This document shows positions 51,227 through 61,067 of a stretch of DNA of 64,000 nucleotides, piece by piece; the stretch's first letter is position 1; each line of letters opens with the position of its first letter. The stretch is from Streptomyces formicae (GTDB taxonomy: Bacteria > Actinomycetota > Actinomycetes > Streptomycetales > Streptomycetaceae). The stretch spans positions 6,054,001 through 6,118,000 of the forward strand of contig NZ_CP022685.1 in assembly GCF_002556545.1 (NCBI RefSeq). Reading direction: 5' to 3'. The translations under genes were made by a program, and so were the position numbers. Under the pieces are notes generated by a model that was not told the origin of the DNA, made no database searches, and saw only the letters and a list, made by a program, of their open reading frames with translations.

Positions 51227-51313
51227 CTCTCCGTAGCGAAAAGGGGCTTTCGAGGCGCTATAGCGCGACAGAACGCTACCGGCGCGGGAAAGTTACGGCC
51301 GTTCACCCCTTTT

Positions 51314-51347
51314 GGTGGCGCGATGGACAACCGTCCATCGCGCCACC
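51314..51347 (+). terminator. Terminator after the ABC importer operon
   Basis: 15-bp perfect stem GGTGGCGCGATGGAC with its complement and loop AACC, preceded by CCTTTT, 87 bp after the ATPase stop and before the exopolysaccharide-like genes. Confidence 0.8.
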
Positions 51348-51427
51348 GTCATGACCGCATACGTTCGTCCCGCTGCGAGCCGCCGGTCCAACGGCGGCTC
51401 CCCAAACGGGAGATCGGGGGTGCACTC

Positions 51428-53191
51428 GTGCGCATCGGACTGCTTACGGAGGGTGGCTATCCGTATGTGAGCGGTGAGGCCAGGCTGTGGTGCGACCGGC
51501 TCGTCCGTGGGCTCGGGCGGCACGAGTTCGACATCTACGCCCTCAGCCGCAGCAGGCGGCAGGAGCAGCAGGGCTGGATCGCGCTCCCGCCCCAGGTCAG
51601 CCGGGTGCGCACGGCGCCGCTGTGGACCGTCGACGACGGCGCGCTGTCCGGCGCGGGCCCCCGGGGAGGCCACGGCAGGCGGGCCAGGCGACGCTTCACT
51701 GAGTGCTTCGGGGAGCTGGCGGCGGTGATCTGCCGGGGCGATTCCGGGGGCGCGGCGACCGACACGGAGCGCCGCCCGCAGGACGTGGCGGACCGTTTCG
51801 GCAACGCGCTGTACGGGCTCGCCGAACTCGCCCGCGACGAAGGCGGCCTCGCCGGTGCCCTGCGCTCCGAGTCCGCCGTGCGCGCCCTGGAGAGCGCCTG
51901 CCGCGCGCCCGGCGCGCTGCGCGCCGCACGCACCGTCCGGGTCCCCGATCTGCTCGCCGTCGCGGGCCTGCTCGAGCGCGCGCTGCGCCCCCTCTCCCTC
52001 GACTGGTACGGGGACGACGGGCTCGGCGCCGTCGACCTGTGCCACGCCACCTCCGGCGGACCCGCGGCGCTGCCCGGGCTGCTCGCCAGGCACTTCGCCG
52101 GAGTGCCGCTGCTCGTCACCGAGTACGGGGTGCAGCTGCGGGCGCACTACCTCGCCGCGGGCGACACCGACCTGAGCGCCCCCGCACGCGCCCTGCTCGC
52201 CTCCTTCCACGGTCTGCTCGCCGCCGAGGTGTACGACAGGGCCACCCTCATCACCCCCGGCAACACGCACGCCCGTCGCTGGCAGGAGCGCTGCGGCGCC
52301 GACCGGGCCAAGCTGCGCACGGTCCACCCCGGCATGGAGGCGGACCGCTTCGCCGAGGTCGGCGAGGGCGGCTACGACGACTCCGCCGCCGACCTGAGCA
52401 CCCTCCTGTGGGTCGGCCGCATCGAGCCCACCAAGGACCTGATCTCCCTGCTCCACGCCTTCGCGGAGGTCCGCAAGGAGGAGCCCGACGCGCGGCTGCG
52501 CATCGTCGGGGCGCCCGCAGAAGGACCCGAGGCGGCCGCCTATCTGGCGCACTGCCGCGCGCTCGCCGCGCAGCTCTTCCCCGACGAGGCCGACGGCGCG
52601 CACGCGGTCGGCGACAACCCCGTCTCCTTCGAGGAGATCGGCGGGCCCGAGACCCCGGAGCTCGTCGACGCGTACGCGGGCGCGGGCGTCGTCGTCCTTT
52701 CGAGCGTCGTCGAGGGCTTCCCGATCAGCCTCGTCGAGGCCATGTTCTGCGGCCGCGCGACCGTCTCGACGGACGTGGGCGCTGTCGTGGAGGTCATCGG
52801 CGGCACGGGCCTCGTCGTACCGCCGCGCAATCCGCGGGCGCTCGCGGAGGCGTGCGTGGCGCTCCTGCGCGACCCCGAGCGCTGCGCGCGCCTGGGCGCG
52901 GCGGCGCGGGCGCGGGCACTCGAACTCTTCACCGTCGAGCAGAACGTCGCGGCCTTCCGGGGGATCTATCTGGAGATCGTCTCGCACTGCCCGGTCCGCA
53001 GGGAGGCCCTCGACGCGTCGGGCGAACCGGTGCCCTTCGCGAACCCCGCCGAGGCGTCCGTGCCGGGCCGCTGGGCGGTCGCTGTGGGGCCCGCGTCCGG
53101 CATGGAGCCCGGCAACGAGAGCGCGGGCGTGCCGAGTTGGGCCGTGGACCGCGTTCCTGCGGACGCCGAGTTGAAGGGGGCGGCCGTATGA
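51428..53191 (+). CDS. PelF-like GT4 glycosyltransferase (DUF3492)
   Basis: 587 aa. The N-terminal DUF3492 part opens with RIGLLTEGGYPYVSGEARLW. LLVTEYGVQLRAHYLA corresponds to the TEHG-type motif of PelF. The C-terminal GT-B half has LLWVGRIEPTKDLISLLHAF and SSVVEGFPISLVEAMFCGRA, the acidic donor-binding Glu pair, then VSTDVGAVVEVIGG. PelF polymerises N-acetyl-hexosamine from UDP-sugar in the cytosol. Residues after about 525 are a Pro/Ala-rich tail. GTG at 51428 with a G-rich tract before it. Overlaps the next gene by 4 bp. Confidence 0.88.
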   Translation: MRIGLLTEGGYPYVSGEARLWCDRLVRGLGRHEFDIYALSRSRRQEQQGWIALPPQVSRVRTAPLWTVDDGALSGAGPRGGHGRRARRRFTECFGELAAVICRGDSGGAATDTERRPQDVADRFGNALYGLAELARDEGGLAGALRSESAVRALESACRAPGALRAARTVRVPDLLAVAGLLERALRPLSLDWYGDDGLGAVDLCHATSGGPAALPGLLARHFAGVPLLVTEYGVQLRAHYLAAGDTDLSAPARALLASFHGLLAAEVYDRATLITPGNTHARRWQERCGADRAKLRTVHPGMEADRFAEVGEGGYDDSAADLSTLLWVGRIEPTKDLISLLHAFAEVRKEEPDARLRIVGAPAEGPEAAAYLAHCRALAAQLFPDEADGAHAVGDNPVSFEEIGGPETPELVDAYAGAGVVVLSSVVEGFPISLVEAMFCGRATVSTDVGAVVEVIGGTGLVVPPRNPRALAEACVALLRDPERCARLGAAARARALELFTVEQNVAAFRGIYLEIVSHCPVRREALDASGEPVPFANPAEASVPGRWAVAVGPASGMEPGNESAGVPSWAVDRVPADAELKGAAV

Positions 53192-54576
53192 ACGGCGTGG
53201 AGCGGACGGCATCCGATGCCGTGGACGCGCCCCGCGCACCGCAGGGCGCGGACGGCTGGGACACGCGGTCCGAGGAGCTTCTCGCGGACGCGGCGCTGAC
53301 GCCGGGGGCGTCGGAACTGCTGCCGGGGGCGTCGGCTCGGGCGCCTGAGTTCGGAGCGTCGATCCCCGCCTTCGGGGAGGCGGACACCGGCATCAGCACC
53401 GGCACCGGCATCAGTACCGGCACCAGCAGAGCGGGGCGCGCGCGGGCCGCCGTCGCCAAGGTGGGACGGCGCGGCGGCGCCGACCCCGTGAAAGCGCTGA
53501 TGCACCGGCACCGCGAGCTGTGCGCCCGCGCCGTCGACCCGCTGGAGATCGCCGCGGGCCTCGAGGCGCACGGCGTGACCGACCGCACCGCGGCCCGCTT
53601 CCGCCACCGCGATGTGTTCGCCCTGGCCGAGGAGATGTACGCGCGCGTGCCGCGCGGTGGCGACGACGGGATTGAACACGCGTCGCCGAGCGCCGCCGAC
53701 GACGTGCGCAACGCACCCGAAGTGCCGCCCGGATGGGCCCTGTTCGCGCTGCTGCCCGGTGCGGTGTGCGCGCTCACCGTCGGGGGGATCGCCCTCTCCG
53801 AGGGCACCACGCGCCTCGTGGTGGGGCTCGGGGGCGCGGCCGCCGTGGCGGTGGCCCTGCGCATCGCCCTGCGGTACGGGCCGCTGCGCTCCCCGGCTCG
53901 TCCGGCGCCCTCCACGCGCGCGTGGGTGTGCTTCCTCCTGGCGTACGCGCTCCTGGGCGACGGGCTGCTGGCGGGCGCCGTGGCGGGCGGACCCGACGAG
54001 CTCTGGGCGCCGTCCTTCGCCGCGGCCCTTGGCCTGTCCTTCGCCGTCGCGCCCGCGATCTGGTGCGCCCGACTCTTCGCCGTACGGGCCGGGGGACGGC
54101 TCCGCGCCAGCCGCGGACTCGATGAATTCGCCCACTCCGTACGGCCGTTGCTCCTCGGCGTGATCGGTATCTTCCTCGCGGCGCTCGCGGCGCTCCTCGT
54201 GCTGTCCGGCGCGGCAGTCGACGCGTGGGGCGGAGAGCGCGGCGCCGCGCCCGCCGGCGCGCTCGGCGGGGCCGGTGCGCTGGGGGCGCTGCTGCTGCTC
54301 GCGCGGCTGCTCGGGGCGTACGGATGCACGCGGGCGCCCGCCCTGCTGCTCGGCGCGGTCGGCGCGGCCGAAGCGCTGGCCGTGGCCCTGGTGTTCGCGG
54401 GGCGGCTGCCCGGGTGCGAGGTGCTCGCGGAGCCCGGCACGGCCGTCGTCGACGCCTGGGGCCCCGGAGCCGTACCCGTCATCGTCTGCGGCACCGCGGC
54501 CCTCGCCCTGCTCGTCCACGCGACCAGGACCCTGACCAGGGCGTCCGCCCACGCCGGACCCGGCGAGGCGCCGTGA
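53188..54576 (+). CDS. Polytopic membrane protein of the exopolysaccharide-like cluster
   Basis: 462 aa. About 95 disordered N-terminal residues contain a GTGISTGT repeat. A conserved-looking cytoplasmic segment follows (VKALMHRHRELCARAVDPLEIAAGLEAHG, with a turn). From residue 180 on there are about eight hydrophobic helices. It has neither the 12-helix MATE-like pattern I would expect of PelG nor a GAF/GGDEF domain as in PelD. It is sandwiched between the PelF-like and epimerase genes with 4-bp coupling upstream. Export or anchoring of the glycan is a guess. Confidence 0.7.
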   Translation: MNGVERTASDAVDAPRAPQGADGWDTRSEELLADAALTPGASELLPGASARAPEFGASIPAFGEADTGISTGTGISTGTSRAGRARAAVAKVGRRGGADPVKALMHRHRELCARAVDPLEIAAGLEAHGVTDRTAARFRHRDVFALAEEMYARVPRGGDDGIEHASPSAADDVRNAPEVPPGWALFALLPGAVCALTVGGIALSEGTTRLVVGLGGAAAVAVALRIALRYGPLRSPARPAPSTRAWVCFLLAYALLGDGLLAGAVAGGPDELWAPSFAAALGLSFAVAPAIWCARLFAVRAGGRLRASRGLDEFAHSVRPLLLGVIGIFLAALAALLVLSGAAVDAWGGERGAAPAGALGGAGALGALLLLARLLGAYGCTRAPALLLGAVGAAEALAVALVFAGRLPGCEVLAEPGTAVVDAWGPGAVPVIVCGTAALALLVHATRTLTRASAHAGPGEAP

Positions 54577-54722
54577 ACCGGCGCGTCGCGAGCGCCCACG
54601 ACCGCACCTCGGCCCGCTCCGCGGGGACCCTCACGCACCACCGTGCAGACCACTCTCCCGCGGGGCCGACACCGCGGGCCTTATCCCGTGAACCACGGCA
54701 ACCTCCCGAAGGAGAAAGACAG

Positions 54723-54779
54723 ATGATCACCCGCAGCCACCTCCGCCTCCGCGCGGTTACCCCGGGAGGCCCCCGATGA
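54723..54779 (+). CDS. 18-codon ORF coupled to the epimerase gene
   Basis: MITRSHLRLRAVTPGGPR, ATG at 54723 with a strong AAGGAG 8 bp upstream. Its TGA overlaps the epimerase ATG (ATGA). The epimerase itself has no good ribosome site, so this mini-ORF probably feeds ribosomes to it. The same frame extends to a GTG at 54573 (68 codons) overlapping the membrane protein stop, but that stretch has no site of its own. Peptide function unknown. Confidence 0.55.
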   Translation: MITRSHLRLRAVTPGGPR

Positions 54780-55729
54780 GGGTGCTGCTGATCGGAGCCA
54801 ATGGTTACCTCGGCCGCTTCGTCGCCGACCGGTTGCTCGCCGACCCCGCGGTGCAGCTGACCGCGCTCGGCCGCGGCGACGACTCGGACGTGCGCTTCGA
54901 CCTCGCGAGCGGCAGTCCCGGCGCGCTGACCCGCTTCCTCGACGCGGTGCACCCGGGCGTCGTCATCAACTGCGCGGGCGCGACCCGAGGCGGCGCCCGC
55001 GAGCTGACCCGGCACAACACCGTCGCCGTCGCCACCATCTGCGAGGCCCTGCGCCGCAGCGGCTGCGGCGCCCGGCTCGTGCAGCTGGGCTGCGGCGCCG
55101 AGTACGGGCCGAGCCAGCCCGGCTCGTCGACCGCGGAGGACGCGGTGCCGCGGCCCGGCGGGCCCTACGGCGTCAGCAAGCTGGCGGCCACCGAACTCGT
55201 GCTCGGCTCCGGGCTCGACGCCGTCGTCCTGCGGGTCTTCTCGCCCGCCGGGCCCGGCACCCCTGCCGGGTCGCCGCTCGGGCGGCTCGCGGAGGCCATG
55301 CGGCGCGCGATGCAGGCGGGCGACGGCGAGCTCAAGCTCGGCGGCCTGGGCGTGCAGCGGGACTTCGTCGACGTACGGGACGTGGCGCGCGCGGTGCACG
55401 CCGCCTCGCTCTCCGCCGCCCAGGGCGTGGTGAACATCGGCGCGGGCCGCGCCGTGCGGCTGCGCGACGCCGCCGCCGTGCTCGCCCGCGTCGCGGGATA
55501 CGGCGGCGCGTTGCACGAACTCGACCAGGTGCCCGTACGGCCATCCATCGGGCACCCCCGCACCGAATCAGAGCACGGGGCCCCGGCCGCCTACCCCTAC
55601 CCGGACGGCTGCGGCAGCTGGCAGCAGGCGGACGTGCGCACCGCGCGCGACCGGCTCGGCTGGCGGCCCCGCATCAACCTCGAAGAGTCACTCGCCGACA
55701 TCTGGATGGAGGCCGCATGCCGCATCTGA
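54776..55729 (+). CDS. NAD-dependent sugar epimerase/dehydratase
   Basis: 317 aa, extended SDR. LLIGANGYLGRFVADRL is the GxxGxxG nucleotide loop (residues 4-20), INCAGATRGG follows strand 4 and YGVSKLAATEL has the catalytic Tyr-x3-Lys (about 136-140). QRDFVDVRDVARAVHAA is the epimerase substrate region. In Pel and galactosaminogalactan loci the matching enzyme is a UDP-GlcNAc C4-epimerase (PelX/Gne). Here the sugar is inferred from context. It overlaps the spherulin gene by 13 bp. Confidence 0.88.
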   Translation: MRVLLIGANGYLGRFVADRLLADPAVQLTALGRGDDSDVRFDLASGSPGALTRFLDAVHPGVVINCAGATRGGARELTRHNTVAVATICEALRRSGCGARLVQLGCGAEYGPSQPGSSTAEDAVPRPGGPYGVSKLAATELVLGSGLDAVVLRVFSPAGPGTPAGSPLGRLAEAMRRAMQAGDGELKLGGLGVQRDFVDVRDVARAVHAASLSAAQGVVNIGAGRAVRLRDAAAVLARVAGYGGALHELDQVPVRPSIGHPRTESEHGAPAAYPYPDGCGSWQQADVRTARDRLGWRPRINLEESLADIWMEAACRI

Positions 55730-56466
55730 CCAGGACCGCCAGGGGCACAGCGAGCACCGACGTACGCATCGGCTTCGGCGTTCCGGGCTTCGCCCACCCG
55801 CTCGTCGCCCCCGCCGAGTGGTCCGAACTCACCCGTCCCGGCACCCCTTTGAAGTGGGTTGTCCTGAATGTCGCCAATGGTCCGGGGGAGCGCCCCGATC
55901 CGCACTGCCTGGAGGCGGCGGGACGGCTGCGGAACGCGGGCGTCCGCGTCCTCGGGCACCTCGACATGACGTACGGCGCCCGGCCCTTCGGCGAGCTGGT
56001 CTCCGACGCCCACCGCTATCTCGACTGGTACCAGGTCGACGGCTTCTCGCTGGACCGCTGTCCGACCGAGCGGGCCGTGCTGCCCGAGGTCCGCAGGACG
56101 GTCACGACGCTGCGCGCGCTGATCGACGACGCGCACATCGTGCTCGGCCACGGCACCCATCCGTACCCCGGATACGCCGAGACGGGCGACCAGTTGGTGA
56201 CCTTCACCGGCCCGTGGAGCGACTACCGCTGGTCGCAGGTGGCCGAGTGGACCGCCGACTACCCACCCGAGCGCTTCTGCCACTTCGTGCACGGCATGCC
56301 GCGCGGGCACCTGGAGGAGGCGCTGCGCATCGCGCGCTGGCAGGGTGCCTCGACGATCTACTTCACCGACCGGGTCGGCGACGGCGGTACGAACGCGCCC
56401 TGGGAGTCCATGCCCGGTTACTGGGACGAGATCGTCTCGCGCATCGGAACAGGTGTCTCGGAATGA
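55717..56466 (+). CDS. Spherulin-4 (GH135-like) family protein
   Basis: 249 aa, TIM-barrel type. KWVVLNVANGPGERPD matches the NxNxGPG opening of the family, GHLDMTYGARP strand 3, and RYLDWYQVDGFSLDRC strand 4. Fungal Sph3 (GH135) cleaves galactosaminogalactan and PelA has a similar hydrolase. The acid pair expected at the strand-4 end reads Asp-Arg here (LDRC), and the usual VTFEG reads VTFTG. Activity may be lost or altered. No signal peptide is evident, which is odd for a glycan hydrolase. Overlaps the epimerase by 13 bp. Confidence 0.78.
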   Translation: MPHLTRTARGTASTDVRIGFGVPGFAHPLVAPAEWSELTRPGTPLKWVVLNVANGPGERPDPHCLEAAGRLRNAGVRVLGHLDMTYGARPFGELVSDAHRYLDWYQVDGFSLDRCPTERAVLPEVRRTVTTLRALIDDAHIVLGHGTHPYPGYAETGDQLVTFTGPWSDYRWSQVAEWTADYPPERFCHFVHGMPRGHLEEALRIARWQGASTIYFTDRVGDGGTNAPWESMPGYWDEIVSRIGTGVSE

Positions 56467-56529: not shown

Positions 56530-57708
56530 GTGTCGCTGCCACCCCTGGTCGAGCCCGCCTCTGAGCTCACCGTCGACGAGGTCCGCAGGTACTCCCGCCA
56601 CCTGATCATCCCCGATGTCGGGATGGACGGGCAGAAGCGGCTGAAGAACGCCAAGGTGCTCTGTGTGGGCGCCGGTGGTCTGGGCTCTCCGGCCCTGATG
56701 TACCTGGCCGCCGCCGGTGTGGGCACGCTCGGCATCGTCGAGTTCGACGAGGTCGACGAGTCCAACCTGCAGCGCCAGATCATCCACAGCCAGGCGGACA
56801 TCGGCCGCTCCAAGGCGGAGTCCGCGAAGGACTCGGTGCTCGGCATCAACCCGTACGTGAACGTGATCCTCCACGAAGAGCGGCTCGAGGCCGAGAACGT
56901 GATGGACATCTTCAGCCAGTACGACCTGATCGTCGACGGCACGGACAACTTCGCGACCCGCTACCTGGTCAACGACGCGTGCGTGCTGCTCAACAAGCCG
57001 TACGTCTGGGGTTCGATCTACCGCTTCGACGGCCAGGCGTCGGTCTTCTGGAGCGAGCACGGTCCGTGCTACCGCTGCCTCTACCCGGAGCCCCCGCCGC
57101 CCGGCATGGTCCCCTCCTGCGCCGAGGGCGGCGTGCTCGGCGTGCTGTGCGCGTCGATCGGTTCCATCCAGGTCAACGAGGCCATCAAGCTCCTCGCGGG
57201 CATCGGCGAGCCGCTGGTCGGCCGCCTGATGATCTACGACGCCCTGGAGATGCAGTACCGCCAGGTCAAGGTCCGCAAGGACCCCGACTGCGCGGTCTGC
57301 GGCGAGAACCCCACCGTCACCGAGCTCATCGACTACGAGGCCTTCTGCGGCGTCGTGTCCGAGGAGGCCCAGGAGGCGGCGGCCGGTTCGACGATCACTC
57401 CCAAGCAGCTCAAGGAGTGGATCGACGGCGACGAGAAGATCGAGATCATCGACGTTCGCGAGCCGAACGAGTACGAGATCGTCTCCATCCCCGGCGCCAA
57501 GCTGATCCCCAAGAACGAGTTCCTCATGGGCACCGCCCTGGAGAGCCTTCCGCAGGACAAGAAGATCGTCTTGCACTGCAAGACGGGTGTCCGCAGTGCG
57601 GAGGTCCTCGCGGTCCTGAAGTCGGCGGGCTTCTCGGACGCGGTGCATGTGGGTGGCGGCGTGATCGGGTGGGTCAACCAGATCGAACCCGACAAGCCGG
57701 TCTACTAG
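56530..57708 (+). CDS. moeZ: MoeZ: adenylyltransferase/sulfurtransferase (ThiF + rhodanese)
   Basis: 392 aa. The ThiF/MoeB domain (1-270) has VGAGGLGSPALMYLAAAG (ATP loop), ESNLQRQIIH with the Arg finger and zinc Cys pairs CYRC and CAVC. The rhodanese domain (about 290-390) carries the persulfide Cys in LHCKTGVRSAEV. It activates ubiquitin-like sulfur carriers (for thiamine, molybdopterin, CysO-type cysteine and thio-natural products) and sulfurates them. GTG start with GGAG at 7 bp. It resumes the conserved block (Rv3206c) interrupted by the ABC and exopolysaccharide genes. Confidence 0.93.
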   Translation: MSLPPLVEPASELTVDEVRRYSRHLIIPDVGMDGQKRLKNAKVLCVGAGGLGSPALMYLAAAGVGTLGIVEFDEVDESNLQRQIIHSQADIGRSKAESAKDSVLGINPYVNVILHEERLEAENVMDIFSQYDLIVDGTDNFATRYLVNDACVLLNKPYVWGSIYRFDGQASVFWSEHGPCYRCLYPEPPPPGMVPSCAEGGVLGVLCASIGSIQVNEAIKLLAGIGEPLVGRLMIYDALEMQYRQVKVRKDPDCAVCGENPTVTELIDYEAFCGVVSEEAQEAAAGSTITPKQLKEWIDGDEKIEIIDVREPNEYEIVSIPGAKLIPKNEFLMGTALESLPQDKKIVLHCKTGVRSAEVLAVLKSAGFSDAVHVGGGVIGWVNQIEPDKPVY

Positions 57709-57824: not shown

Positions 57825-59402
57825 TCAGGACGAGCAGACCTTGCCGTCCTTCGGGACCTTGCCGGTGAGGAGGTAGTCGTCGACCGTGCCGTCCACGCAG
57901 TCGCTGCCGTTGCCGTACGCCCCGTGTCCCTCGCCCTTCCAGGTCAGCAGCGTGCCGACGCCCTTGCCGAGCTCGTCCGCCATCTTGCGGGCGCCCTCGT
58001 AGGGCGTCGCCGGATCGCCGGTGTTGCCCACGACGAGGATCGGGGCGGCGCCGGGGGCGCTCACCTCGGGGGAGTCGTGCAGTCCGGCCACCGGCCAGTC
58101 GTGGCACCAGCCCGCCGTGTCCCAGCCGAGGAACTCGCCGAAGACCGGGGAGATCTCACGGAACCGGCCGAGCCGCTGCTTCGCCTCCTCCGGGGTCGTG
58201 CGCGCCTTGTCGTCCAGGCAGGAGATCGCCCGCTGCGAGTGGCTCTGCGTGCTGTAGTGACCGGAGGGATCGCGTTCGTTGTAGGCGTCCGCGAGTTGCA
58301 GCAGCGCCGAGCCGTCGCCCTTCTCCGCGTCCTGGAGGGCACGGGTCAGCGTCGGCCAGGTCTGCTTGCTGTAGAGCGTGATGGTGATGCCGGTCATCGC
58401 CAGGGACTCGGTCAGCTCGCGGTCGCCCGAGGCGCGCAGCGGCTTGGCGTCGAGGTCCTTGAGCAGCTTCACGACCTTCGCGGAGCCCTTCTTCGGGTCC
58501 TCGCCGAGCGACGTGAAGTAGTTGTCGAGGGCGCGCTGGAAGCCACGCGCCTGGTTCTCCGCGTGCCCCACCGAGTCCGCGCTCGGGTCGACGACCGCGT
58601 CGAGGGTGAGGCGGCCGACCCGCTCGGGGAACAAGTGCGCGTACGTCCCGCCGAGTTCGGTGCCGTACGAGATGCCCATGTAGTGCAGCTTGTCGTCGCC
58701 GAGGACCTGGCGCATGACGTCCATGTCGCGGGCGGCGTCGGCCGTGGAGACATGGCCGATGACCTTCTTCGCCCCGCGCGCGCAGCCCGCGCCGAAGTCG
58801 GCCGCGTCCTTGAAGTAGGTCTTCTCCTCGGCCGCCGTGTTCGGCGTGAGGTCCACCTTCCGCTCGGCGGCCTGTGTCGCGCTGTCGTCCCGGCAGCGCA
58901 CGCCCTCGCTGGCCGCGACGCCGCGCGGGTCGAAGCTGACCAGGTCGTACCGCTCGCGCAGTGAGCCGTACATGTCGGCGAAGGACGGCAGCCCGGAGAC
59001 GCCCGAGCCGCCGGGGCCGCCGAAGTTGAAGAGGAGCGAGCCGATGCGGTCGCCCTTGCCGGTGGTCTTGGCGCGGATCAGGGCGATGCCGATCGTCTCG
59101 CCCTTCGGCTTCGCGTAGTCGAGGGGGACGTCGAGGGTCGAGCACTGCCATTCCGCGCCGGGCGCGGTGCCTCCCTCGGGGGCCTTGCAGCGCGACCAGT
59201 CCAGCTTCTGCGCGGTGACCGAGAGCGGCAGGGAGGAGGAGGGGTCGGGCTTCGGCGCCGCGCCCGAGGTGTCCGTCGACGGGCCCTTGCCGCTGCCCTT
59301 GCCGTCCCCCTTCGCGTCGTCGTCCGACGAACAGCCGACGGCGAGTCCCGCCATCAGGACTCCGGCCGCGGCGAGGGCCGCGGAACGCACGAAACGCTGC
59401 AT
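57825..59402 (-). CDS. Secreted TAP-like alpha/beta-hydrolase lipoprotein, paralogue 1
   Basis: 525 aa. Lipobox GLAVGC (Cys about 24), then a Lys/Gly/Asp linker. FNFGGPGGSGVSGL is the oxyanion loop, YMGISYGTELGG the nucleophile elbow (Ser), LVVGNTGDPATPYEGA the acid Asp and GEGHGAYGNGSDC the His. This is the order of Streptomyces tripeptidyl-aminopeptidase SlpD/TAP-type enzymes with the TAP C-terminal domain. It would trim N-terminal peptides outside the cell. A close paralogue lies directly upstream on the same strand. Confidence 0.9.
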   Translation of the reverse strand: MQRFVRSAALAAAGVLMAGLAVGCSSDDDAKGDGKGSGKGPSTDTSGAAPKPDPSSSLPLSVTAQKLDWSRCKAPEGGTAPGAEWQCSTLDVPLDYAKPKGETIGIALIRAKTTGKGDRIGSLLFNFGGPGGSGVSGLPSFADMYGSLRERYDLVSFDPRGVAASEGVRCRDDSATQAAERKVDLTPNTAAEEKTYFKDAADFGAGCARGAKKVIGHVSTADAARDMDVMRQVLGDDKLHYMGISYGTELGGTYAHLFPERVGRLTLDAVVDPSADSVGHAENQARGFQRALDNYFTSLGEDPKKGSAKVVKLLKDLDAKPLRASGDRELTESLAMTGITITLYSKQTWPTLTRALQDAEKGDGSALLQLADAYNERDPSGHYSTQSHSQRAISCLDDKARTTPEEAKQRLGRFREISPVFGEFLGWDTAGWCHDWPVAGLHDSPEVSAPGAAPILVVGNTGDPATPYEGARKMADELGKGVGTLLTWKGEGHGAYGNGSDCVDGTVDDYLLTGKVPKDGKVCSS

Positions 59403-59519: not shown

Positions 59520-61067
59520 TCAGCCGCAGACCGTTCCCGTCTTCGGCACGGTGCCGTCCAGCAGATAGCCGTTCACGGCACCCCGTACGCACGCGTTCTT
59601 GCTGTCGTACGCCCCGTGGCCCTGGCCCTTGTACGTCAACTCGACGCCGACGCCCTTGCCCAGTGCCTGCGCCATCTTCCGCGCTCCTTCGTAAGGCGTG
59701 GCCGGGTCGCCCGTGTTGCCGATGACGACGATGGGCGGCGCGCCTTCGGCGCCGACGTTCGGGTGGTCGGCCTGGCCCTCCACCGCCCAGTCCGTGCAGC
59801 CGACCATGCCCCAGGCCAGGTAGTCGCCGAACAGCGGTGACGCCTCGCGGAACCCGGGGAGCTTCTGCTCGACGTACTCCCTGGTGTAACGCGCCTTGTC
59901 GTCCGCGCAGTTGATGGAGACGTTGGCCGCCTGGATGTTGCTGTACTCGCCGTCCTCGCCGCGTCCGTTCATCGAGTCGGACAGGGACATGAGGATCTTG
60001 CCGTCGCCGTCGTACGCCTCTTCGAGCCCTTGCGTGAGGTACGGCCAGAAGTCCTTGGAGTACAGGGACTGCGCGATGCCGTTGGTGGCGGCGGTCTGGG
60101 TCAGCTCGCGGGGCGGCAGGCCGGTGATCGGCTTGCTGTCGAGGTCATCGAGCAGCTTGGCGATCTTGTCCTTGACGTCCTGTTCGGTGTCGCCGACGGG
60201 GCAGTCCGTCACCTTGGAGGTGCAGTCCTTCGCGAAGTTGTCCAGCGCGAGCTGGAACCCCTTCGCCTGGCCGAGGGAGCCCTGTTCGGCCGTCTGGGTG
60301 GGGTCGACCACCGCGTCGAAGACGGCCCGGCCCACCTTCTTGGGGAACAAGTGGGCGTATACGCCGCCGAGTTCGGTGCCGTACGAGATGCCGAAGTAGT
60401 GCAGCTTGTCATCGCCGAGCACCTGGCGCATCAGGTCCATGTCGCGGGCCGCGTCGGTGGTGCGCACGTGGGGGAGCGTCTTGCCGGAGTTCTTCTCGCA
60501 GGCACCGTTGAACGACTTCACGTTCTCGACGAGCTTCTTCTTCTCGGCGTCGTCGTCGGGGGTGGAGTCCTGCTGGAAGTACTCGTCCAGTTGTTCGTCG
60601 TCCTCGCACTTGATGCCCGCGCTGCGGCCGACGCCGCGGGGGTCGAAGCTGACCAGGTCGTAGCGGGTGCGCAGCTTGGCGTAGTCCGCGCCGAAGGCGG
60701 GCAGCGTGGTGACGCCCGAGCCGCCGGGGCCGCCGAAGTTGAAGACCAGGGAGCCGATGCGGTCGTCATCGTCCCCGCTCGTCTCGGCCCTGATCAGCGC
60801 GATGTCGATCGTGTCGCCCTTGGGGTCGGCCCAGTCGAGCGGCGCCTTCATGGTGGCGCACTGCCACTCGGCTCCGCCGGGCAGCGGTGACGGGGCGCCT
60901 CCGCCGCCCTCGGCGGCCGAGGGCGCGGGGCAGTCCTTCCAGCTCAGCTTCTGGTCCGGCAGGGCCTCGTCCTTGGAGTCGCTGCCGCCACAGGCCGCGA
61001 GCGTGGCGACGAGCAGGGCGGCGGTGGCGGCCACGGCGGTGGTGCGTGGCGGGGACTGTGTGGGCAT
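59520..61067 (-). CDS. Secreted TAP-like alpha/beta-hydrolase lipoprotein, paralogue 2
   Basis: 515 aa, same architecture as the gene after it: lipobox ATLAAC (Cys about 26), FNFGGPGGSGVTTL, FGISYGTELGGVYAHLFP, VIGNTGDPATPYEGA and GQGHGAYDSKNAC. The two proteins are similar over their full length, so this is a tandem duplication. ATG at 61067 has GGGGA upstream; the frame runs on to 61217 without a site. The 117-bp gap to paralogue 1 has no clear terminator. Likely extracellular aminopeptidase. Confidence 0.9.
   Translation of the reverse strand: MPTQSPPRTTAVAATAALLVATLAACGGSDSKDEALPDQKLSWKDCPAPSAAEGGGGAPSPLPGGAEWQCATMKAPLDWADPKGDTIDIALIRAETSGDDDDRIGSLVFNFGGPGGSGVTTLPAFGADYAKLRTRYDLVSFDPRGVGRSAGIKCEDDEQLDEYFQQDSTPDDDAEKKKLVENVKSFNGACEKNSGKTLPHVRTTDAARDMDLMRQVLGDDKLHYFGISYGTELGGVYAHLFPKKVGRAVFDAVVDPTQTAEQGSLGQAKGFQLALDNFAKDCTSKVTDCPVGDTEQDVKDKIAKLLDDLDSKPITGLPPRELTQTAATNGIAQSLYSKDFWPYLTQGLEEAYDGDGKILMSLSDSMNGRGEDGEYSNIQAANVSINCADDKARYTREYVEQKLPGFREASPLFGDYLAWGMVGCTDWAVEGQADHPNVGAEGAPPIVVIGNTGDPATPYEGARKMAQALGKGVGVELTYKGQGHGAYDSKNACVRGAVNGYLLDGTVPKTGTVCG

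What the first reader, a model, noticed from the sequence alone, without database searches (positions are those of the whole stretch)
51428..56466. Minimal Pel/galactosaminogalactan-like exopolysaccharide locus
PelF-like glycosyltransferase, an 8-helix membrane protein, a sugar epimerase and a Spherulin-4 (GH135-like) protein overlap as one unit. Pel and fungal galactosaminogalactan loci combine the same functions (polymerase, export, UDP-sugar C4-epimerase, Sph3/PelA hydrolase). No PelD, PelG-type MATE protein, deacetylase or c-di-GMP receptor is present, so this would be a distinct, simplified system.
Basis: partly seen in the sequence, partly recalled or inferred. Interest (0 to 1): 0.75.

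Follow-up and report, generated by a model that had tools for sequence, protein, structure and literature searches.

The report
Stripped-down exopolysaccharide operon in Streptomyces
Streptomyces and related genera carry next to the housekeeping gene moeZ a reduced copy of a fungal-type sugar-polymer operon whose hydrolase has lost a catalytic residue, so it probably makes some other, unidentified glycan.

Summary
The four genes are real: a PelF-like GT4 enzyme, an 8-helix membrane protein, an extended SDR and a Spherulin-4 (GH135-fold) protein, followed by moeZ. The set occurs in 65 of 65 Streptomyces sampled (Spherulin-4 missing or a remnant in 5) and in other Streptomycetaceae. The GT does not group with PelG-linked PelF; it is sister to GTs of fuller galactosaminogalactan(GAG)-like operons (CE18-like deacetylase, GT, ~11-helix protein, Spherulin-4, often GH114), noted in Actinobacteria by Bamford et al. 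2020. Against those, the moeZ-linked copy lacks deacetylase and GH114, has about three fewer helices and an altered GT loop; its SDR triad Ser is Cys (64/64; type II Ser 17/17) and its Spherulin-4 acid/base Glu is lost (0/59 against 33/33 in GAG-like copies; 0/120 in a second, database set). Wenjunlia tyrosinilytica keeps both residues, so both changes map near one branch. Best reading: a vertically inherited derivative that still transfers sugar in the cytoplasm, with Spherulin-4 as a glycan-binding pseudoenzyme; the product is unknown, probably not a cationic biofilm polymer. 'Minimal Pel' is not supported; GAG-like ancestry is.

The parts
51314..51347 (+). 15-bp stem hairpin between the upstream oligopeptide ABC operon and the GT gene; probable boundary or terminator, so that the GT starts its own unit (inference)
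   Evidence: RNA fold of 51305-51365 -33.5 kcal/mol, z -6.4, 0 of 200 shuffles as good; the simple T-tract terminator scan did not list it; conservation not tested
51428..53191 (+). GT4/DUF3492 PelF-like glycosyltransferase; EX7E kept, N-terminal GG loop altered (SGE)
   Evidence: Pfam; NCBIfam PelF 104.1 bits vs 100; motif comparison; tree
53188..54576 (+). 8-TM membrane protein with conserved N-terminal helical domain (about residues 99-156, cytosolic by inference); shortened homologue of the ~11-TM protein of GAG-like operons; possibly MOP (MATE/MurJ-like) fold
54723..54779 (+). 18-codon leader ORF with Shine-Dalgarno, its stop overlapping the SDR start (ATGA)
   Evidence: an SD-preceded short ORF ending at the same place in 65 of 79 moeZ-linked loci; SDR codon 2 is AGG/AGA in 79 of 79 although AGR makes about 2.4% of Arg codons in the rest of the gene
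54776..55729 (+). extended SDR (NAD-dependent epimerase/dehydratase family), about 90% identical across the genus; triad Tyr131/Lys135 kept, Ser replaced by Cys106 (codon 55091-55093)
55717..56466 (+). Spherulin-4 / GH135-fold protein without a hydrophobic N-terminus; Asp113 (56053-56055) kept, acid/base Glu replaced by Thr164 (56206-56208): probable pseudoenzyme
56530..57708 (+). MoeZ (ThiF + rhodanese), invariant downstream neighbour, perhaps co-transcribed; SCO5178 (moeB, putative sulfurylase) of S. coelicolor is presumably the orthologue
   Evidence: SCO5178 annotation from PMC4340878 passages, orthology recalled, not tested

Best explanation
The locus is a vertically inherited, reduced paralogue of the bacterial galactosaminogalactan-like operon (CE18-like deacetylase, PelF-like GT4, ~11-TM membrane protein, in some also NDP-sugar genes, GH135, GH114 lipoprotein), fixed upstream of moeZ in Streptomycetaceae. 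SHOWN by sequence: shared descent with those operons rather than with PelG-linked Pel; absence of the extracellular tailoring enzymes from the locus; a membrane protein with fewer predicted helices; an altered GT loop with the C-terminal EX7E intact; SDR Ser to Cys; loss of the Spherulin-4 acid/base Glu. INFERRED mechanism: in the cytoplasm the SDR makes or edits an NDP-sugar (perhaps a 4-keto/6-deoxy sugar rather than UDP-GalNAc); the GT4 transfers it to a membrane-bound acceptor; the membrane protein anchors the GT through its conserved N-terminal domain and may translocate the product; Spherulin-4 no longer cuts but binds the nascent chain, as a glycan chaperone or length sensor. The product would be a neutral envelope glycan or glycolipid, not a de-N-acetylated adhesive biofilm polymer.
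Against: No product, acceptor or expression evidence; all function is inferred. The GT loop change could mean loss of activity. The GAG-like operons' Spherulin-4 also lacks a strong hydrophobic N-terminus, so location says nothing special about this copy. Spherulin-4 is absent or a remnant in 5 of 65 genomes. The window genome has one GH114 elsewhere, so a hydrolase could act in trans. The residue changes trace to about one branch each and are not independent events; genus g103 (L210) has SDR Ser but Spherulin-4 Glu replaced by Asp.
Confidence: 0.55

Rival explanations
1. One reading: a minimal but complete Pel/GAG-like system that makes and exports a GalNAc-rich exopolysaccharide, with Spherulin-4 as its hydrolase.
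For: Marginal PelF equivalog score; Spherulin4 family and Sph3 fold; descent from GAG-like operons; possible MOP fold of the membrane protein.
Against: Acid/base Glu lost; no deacetylase or GH114 in the locus and no CE18 homologue in the genome; membrane protein shortened; SDR triad Ser lost.
Confidence: 0.1
2. The GT conjugates a single sugar or short oligosaccharide to a lipid or small molecule (glycolipid or intracellular glycoside); the membrane protein is only an anchor.
For: Altered N-terminal loop with intact EX7E; about three helices fewer in the membrane protein, which weakens a transporter role; no secreted component in the locus.
Against: A GH135 fold is retained under purifying selection in 60 of 65 genomes, which suits a chain rather than one sugar.
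Confidence: 0.2
3. The module has become regulatory or structural: altered GT, SDR and GH act as NDP-sugar or glycan sensors, with little or no synthesis.
For: Changed active-site residues in three of the proteins.
Against: SDR under very strong constraint with Tyr and Lys of the triad kept; GT EX7E pattern found 59 times in 64 genus copies.
Confidence: 0.1
4. The invariant moeZ neighbour is functional: sulfur activated by MoeZ is used on the glycan or its sugar nucleotide.
For: moeZ downstream on the same strand in 65 of 65 Streptomyces loci and 15 of 20 others fetched, median 63 bp after Spherulin-4 in 69 loci; MoeZ-type proteins feed thiosugar pathways (recalled, no call).
Against: moeZ is a general housekeeping gene; all these loci may simply inherit one ancestral insertion; no sulfur-transfer enzyme in the locus.
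Confidence: 0.04

Closest known systems
Actinobacterial Agd3(CE18)/GH114/Spherulin-4 operons (Bamford et al. 2020, PMC7229062: passages and section 13 seen, no supplement); here types II and III
   Same: Same GT, membrane-protein, SDR (type II) and Spherulin-4 families; sister GTs
   Different: Those have a CE18-like deacetylase, GH114 in 19 of 34 loci fetched, ~11-TM protein, intact Spherulin-4 Asp/Glu and SDR Ser; a second strong DUF3492 match of this kind is in 35 of 65 genomes (my tally; loci of 26 of the 35 fetched); no moeZ beside them in the 34 stretches
Fungal galactosaminogalactan cluster (gtb3, agd3, ega3, sph3, uge3)
   Same: Glycosyltransferase, SDR/epimerase, GH135 fold
   Different: Fungal Sph3 is membrane-bound and acts outside (PMC12054363 passages); here without membrane anchor and lacking the acid/base Glu; no agd3 or ega3 counterpart in the locus
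Pel operons, Gram-negative and Gram-positive (pelDEADAFG; PMC7112168 passages)
   Same: PelF-family GT4 with DUF3492
   Different: No PelD, PelE, deacetylase or sequence-recognisable PelG beside it; GT on the other side of a 100/100 branch
Streptomyces PNAG (MatAB) and CslA/GlxA polymers (PMC5972031 passages)
   Same: Streptomyces envelope glycans
   Different: Different synthases at other loci (recalled; not compared here)

Membership tests
Pel system | PelF glycosyltransferase (family model) | tested here: met
   NF038011 104.1 bits, cut-off 100: a marginal pass
Pel system | GT groups with PelG-linked PelF | tested here: not met
   100/100 separation of 5 PelG-linked PelFs (with a Paenarthrobacter GT without annotated pelG) from the GAG-like and moeZ-linked rows; the tool warns of long branches
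Pel system | PelG transporter | tested here: inconclusive
Pel system | PelD, PelE and deacetylase beside the GT | tested here: not met
   Neighbours are an oligopeptide ABC ATPase and MoeZ; type II/III homologues of the membrane protein are not PelE-like. The rest of the genome was not searched for PelD or PelE
GAG-like operon (CE18 type) | CE18/Agd3-like deacetylase | tested here: not met
   None in G000; 4 of 4 tested genomes with type II/III operons rang, 9 of 9 without did not (G000 included)
GAG-like operon (CE18 type) | GH114 endo-galactosaminidase in the locus | tested here: not met
   The only GH114 match of G000 lies at 334032, far away
GAG-like operon (CE18 type) | GT and membrane protein of the GAG-like families | tested here: met
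   GT tree; hhalign of membrane proteins prob. 99.3 over 154 columns of the C-terminal part
GH135 (Sph3) | Sph3-like (beta/alpha)8 fold | tested here: met
GH135 (Sph3) | catalytic Asp166 and acid/base Glu222 | tested here: not met
   Window has Asp113 but Thr164; Glu in 0 of 59 genus copies
GH135 (Sph3) | extracytoplasmic location | tested here: not met
   No hydrophobic stretch (15-aa mean 1.6 or more) in the first 45 residues of 59 of 59 genus copies, a crude test
UDP-sugar 4-epimerase (extended SDR) | GxxGxxG and Ser/Thr-Tyr-Lys triad | tested here: not met
   GxxGxxG, Tyr, Lys kept; Ser is Cys in 64 of 64
UDP-sugar 4-epimerase (extended SDR) | epimerase activity | not testable with these tools
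   Two best solved chains are GDP-6-deoxy-hexulose/-mannose reductases
MOP superfamily (MATE/MurJ/PelG) | 12-14 TM two-lobed fold | tested here: inconclusive
   8 TM here, ~11 in relatives; structural matches coherent but within the range chance can give for helical models

The most novel reading that the evidence does not exclude
Streptomycetaceae turned a patchily distributed GAG-type exopolymer operon into a fixed core module that makes a so far undescribed, conserved envelope glycan: the cytosolic GH135 became a glycan-binding pseudoenzyme (a chaperone or ruler of the nascent chain), the SDR acquired a Cys-Tyr-Lys triad with altered chemistry, and the exporter is a truncated MOP-like protein.
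Probability: 0.3. Interest if true: 0.75.

Novelty: new variant of a known kind. Interest (0 to 1): 0.5.

Why it matters
A glycan locus present in every Streptomyces genome sampled here (65 of 65) has no function assigned in what I saw of the paper searches (listings; open-licence papers only). If the reading holds, it shows how an exopolymer machine was taken into the core genome by losing its extracellular half and its hydrolase activity. It also offers a natural experiment on what GH135/GH166-type hydrolases do in synthesis: the fold is kept while the catalytic Glu is lost, with an intact sister copy in Wenjunlia and intact paralogues in about half of the same genomes. The seemingly cytosolic GH135 in the fuller bacterial operons is itself at odds with the extracellular placing in the fungal model.

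Tried and rejected
Minimal Pel: rejected on the GT tree and profile comparisons. Chance or artefact: rejected by genus-wide conservation. Recent horizontal island: rejected for the moeZ-linked copy (65 of 65 genomes); related fuller operons are on plasmids in Kocuria rosea, S. californicus and Deinococcus. A named fold for the membrane protein: Foldseek gave nothing at E 0.001; VIA-align gave MOP proteins as the first 13 rows, kept as suggestive because helical models can reach such Z by chance. Pfam at E up to 10 gave only one chance-level match (E 2.8) in 11 of them, and PDB sequences nothing below E 0.06. CE18 label: Pfam Agd3_CE is below its cut-off in the two members tested (18.5 and 19 bits against 27.6) and no PDB chain matched one of them; the name rests on these weak hits plus the published operon description, so it is written CE18-like. 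LegB-like: TIGR04180 455 bits, below its cut-off of 475. Developmental regulon paper: none of the terms tried occurs. S. coelicolor tags SCO5179-5182: no paper found; that these are the orthologues is recalled, not shown. Sulfur link through moeZ: kept only as a 4% rival.

Dropped rows and results against the story: residue counts use genes my simple caller found: 64 of 65 GT (one contig ends, G046), 64 of 65 SDR and 59 of 60 Spherulin-4 (G014 mis-called). Single-protein helix counts of the genus copies scatter (8 in 28, 7 in 20, 6 in 12, 9 in 1 of 61 over 340 aa). The GT loop pattern matched 48 of 64 genus copies (42 acidic, 6 Gly, the latter unchecked); of 16 unmatched, 14 were read by eye as acidic, 2 gave nothing. 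g103 (L210) has SDR Ser, Tyr to Phe, and Spherulin-4 Asp/Asp; one Actinacidiphila-group copy (L159) has Asp in place of the Glu with SDR Cys. Asp113 is kept in only 30 of 59 copies though in 104 of 120 closer ones. Glu167 of Sph3 is not kept even in type II/III. The Cys branch has support 90/71 only. The second and third residue sets may share species with the first. Spherulin-4 of type II/III: 3 of 33 have an N-terminal stretch at 1.6 or more, none at 2.0; the secreted CE18-like set reaches 2.0 only in 17 of 33, so the test is crude. Three genomes without a DUF3492 match (G268, G269, G270) still have the SDR; moeZ was seen beside it in G268 and G269; G270's locus was not fetched.
Full report
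WHAT IS THERE. The window lies in a 9.61-Mb single-contig genome; the membrane protein's nearest named relative is from Streptomyces formicae, 97%. At the given coordinates are four co-directional genes: a GT4 glycosyltransferase with an N-terminal DUF3492 domain (NCBIfam PelF 104.1 bits against a cut-off of 100), an 8-helix membrane protein without a Pfam family, an extended SDR and a Spherulin-4 protein. The next gene, moeZ, follows 63 bp on. A strong 15-bp hairpin separates the GT from the oligopeptide ABC operon upstream. GT/membrane protein and SDR/Spherulin-4 overlap; between membrane protein and SDR lie 199 bp with a short leader ORF.

HOW WIDESPREAD. In 80 genomes of the order, GT (DUF3492), membrane protein and SDR (E 1e-30) were found in 65 of 65 Streptomyces and in 0 of 15 others, with the order GT-TM-SDR-(Spherulin-4)-moeZ where the stretch holds the genes (the GT is cut off in G046, the SDR and Spherulin-4 were mis-called in G014 though found). 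Spherulin-4 is missing from the locus in G022, G035, G040 and G064 and is a 37-residue remnant in G055. In 121 genomes drawn from the family 109 have DUF3492 (14 of 17 genera). Of 20 further loci fetched, most chosen for scores like the window's, 15 are moeZ-linked copies in other genera. In 197 genomes of the class 19 rang, 16 of the genus and 3 others.

ITS RELATIVES. The same gene families form larger operons. Type II has a CE18-like secreted protein, a PelF-like GT (about 190-214 bits for DUF3492 as a rule), membrane protein, LegB-like 4,6-dehydratase, nucleotidyltransferase, SDR, Spherulin-4 and, in 10 of 17 stretches, GH114. Type III has CE18-like, GT, membrane protein, Spherulin-4 and, in 9 of 17, GH114. 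By my tally, 35 of the 65 Streptomyces genomes have a second DUF3492 match of 150 bits or more; I fetched such loci for 26 of the 35. The window genome has none and no CE18 homologue; of 13 genomes tested, the 4 with such operons rang and the 9 without did not. These are the kind of Actinobacteria operon that Bamford et al. 2020 described as holding a cytoplasmic GT, a multi-spanning membrane protein, GH114 and in some cases spherulin-4 (PMC7229062, passages, section 13). Similar sets occur in Deinococcus and on plasmids of Kocuria rosea and S. californicus.

THE SDR AND GT HAVE CHANGED TOO. The SDR is the most constrained of the four proteins (about 90% identity; dN/dS 0.13 against 0.15 for moeZ). 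Its triad Ser is Cys in 64 of 64 genus copies and Ser in 17 of 17 readable type II copies. In 30 loci from 15 genera of the family, 16 SDRs have Cys: where a Spherulin-4 residue could be read (11) none has the Glu. Of 14 with Ser, three have a readable Spherulin-4: Asp/Glu in Wenjunlia and in g108 (not moeZ-linked), Asp/Asp in g103. The Cys form arose once on the SDR tree (support 90/71), and the GT tree places the Wenjunlia copy just outside the changed clade (96/92). The GT keeps EX7E, but the second Gly of its N-terminal GG loop is acidic in at least 56 of 64 copies (42 by pattern, 14 by eye), against Gly in 38 of 39 type II/III copies (36 by pattern, 2 by eye); TEHG reads TEYG in 51 of 64 (TEHG in 4). 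The two best solved chains for the SDR are 6-deoxy-hexose reductases, and in type II it sits with a 4,6-dehydratase and a nucleotidyltransferase, which suggests a 6-deoxy sugar rather than GalNAc (inference). The window genome has a 54%-identical dehydratase elsewhere.

READING. The evolutionary statement (derived from a GAG-like operon, fixed next to moeZ, stripped of extracellular enzymes, hydrolase inactivated) rests on sequence and I hold it at about 0.85. What it makes is open: I favour a membrane-associated glycan made in the cytoplasm with Spherulin-4 as a glycan-binding pseudoenzyme, at about 0.55 for the explanation as a whole. A secreted adhesive GalN polymer is unlikely without the deacetylase. 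The kind of system is known; this variant, as far as the ten paper searches reach, is not described.

Noticed in passing
54723-54779 and the same place in related loci: Short leader ORF with SD, its stop overlapping the SDR start, in 65 of 79 moeZ-linked loci; SDR codon 2 is the rare AGG/AGA in 79 of 79. In Wenjunlia (L158) the membrane-protein gene itself overlaps the SDR start, so the leader may be a relic that keeps translational coupling; an A-rich start is an alternative reason for AGR.
   Followed up: partly
L165 and L207 (G274, genus g108): A full type II operon (CE18-like, dehydratase, nucleotidyltransferase, Spherulin-4 with Asp/Glu) whose SDR is closer to the moeZ-linked SDRs (60-66%) than type II SDRs are (about 46%): a possible picture of the ancestral state.
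   Followed up: partly
L057:11394-12119, L065:9049-9708 and other type II/III loci: In the fuller bacterial GAG-like operons the catalytically intact Spherulin-4 (GH135) has no strongly hydrophobic N-terminus (0 of 33 at 2.0), unlike membrane-bound fungal Sph3.
   Followed up: yes
L180 (Kocuria rosea plasmid), L181 (S. californicus linear plasmid), L173 (Deinococcus plasmid): GAG-like operons occur on plasmids; the Kocuria one is flanked by two copies of the same transposase in opposite orientation.
   Followed up: no
G077:C89:28435-28716 and G034:C2:75928-76008: Extra stretches of about 30 residues resembling the C-terminus of the membrane protein lie downstream of its gene.
   Followed up: no
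57825-59402 and 59520-61067 (minus strand): Two adjacent paralogous lipoprotein alpha/beta-hydrolases (tripeptidyl-aminopeptidase-like by eye) convergent with moeZ.
   Followed up: no
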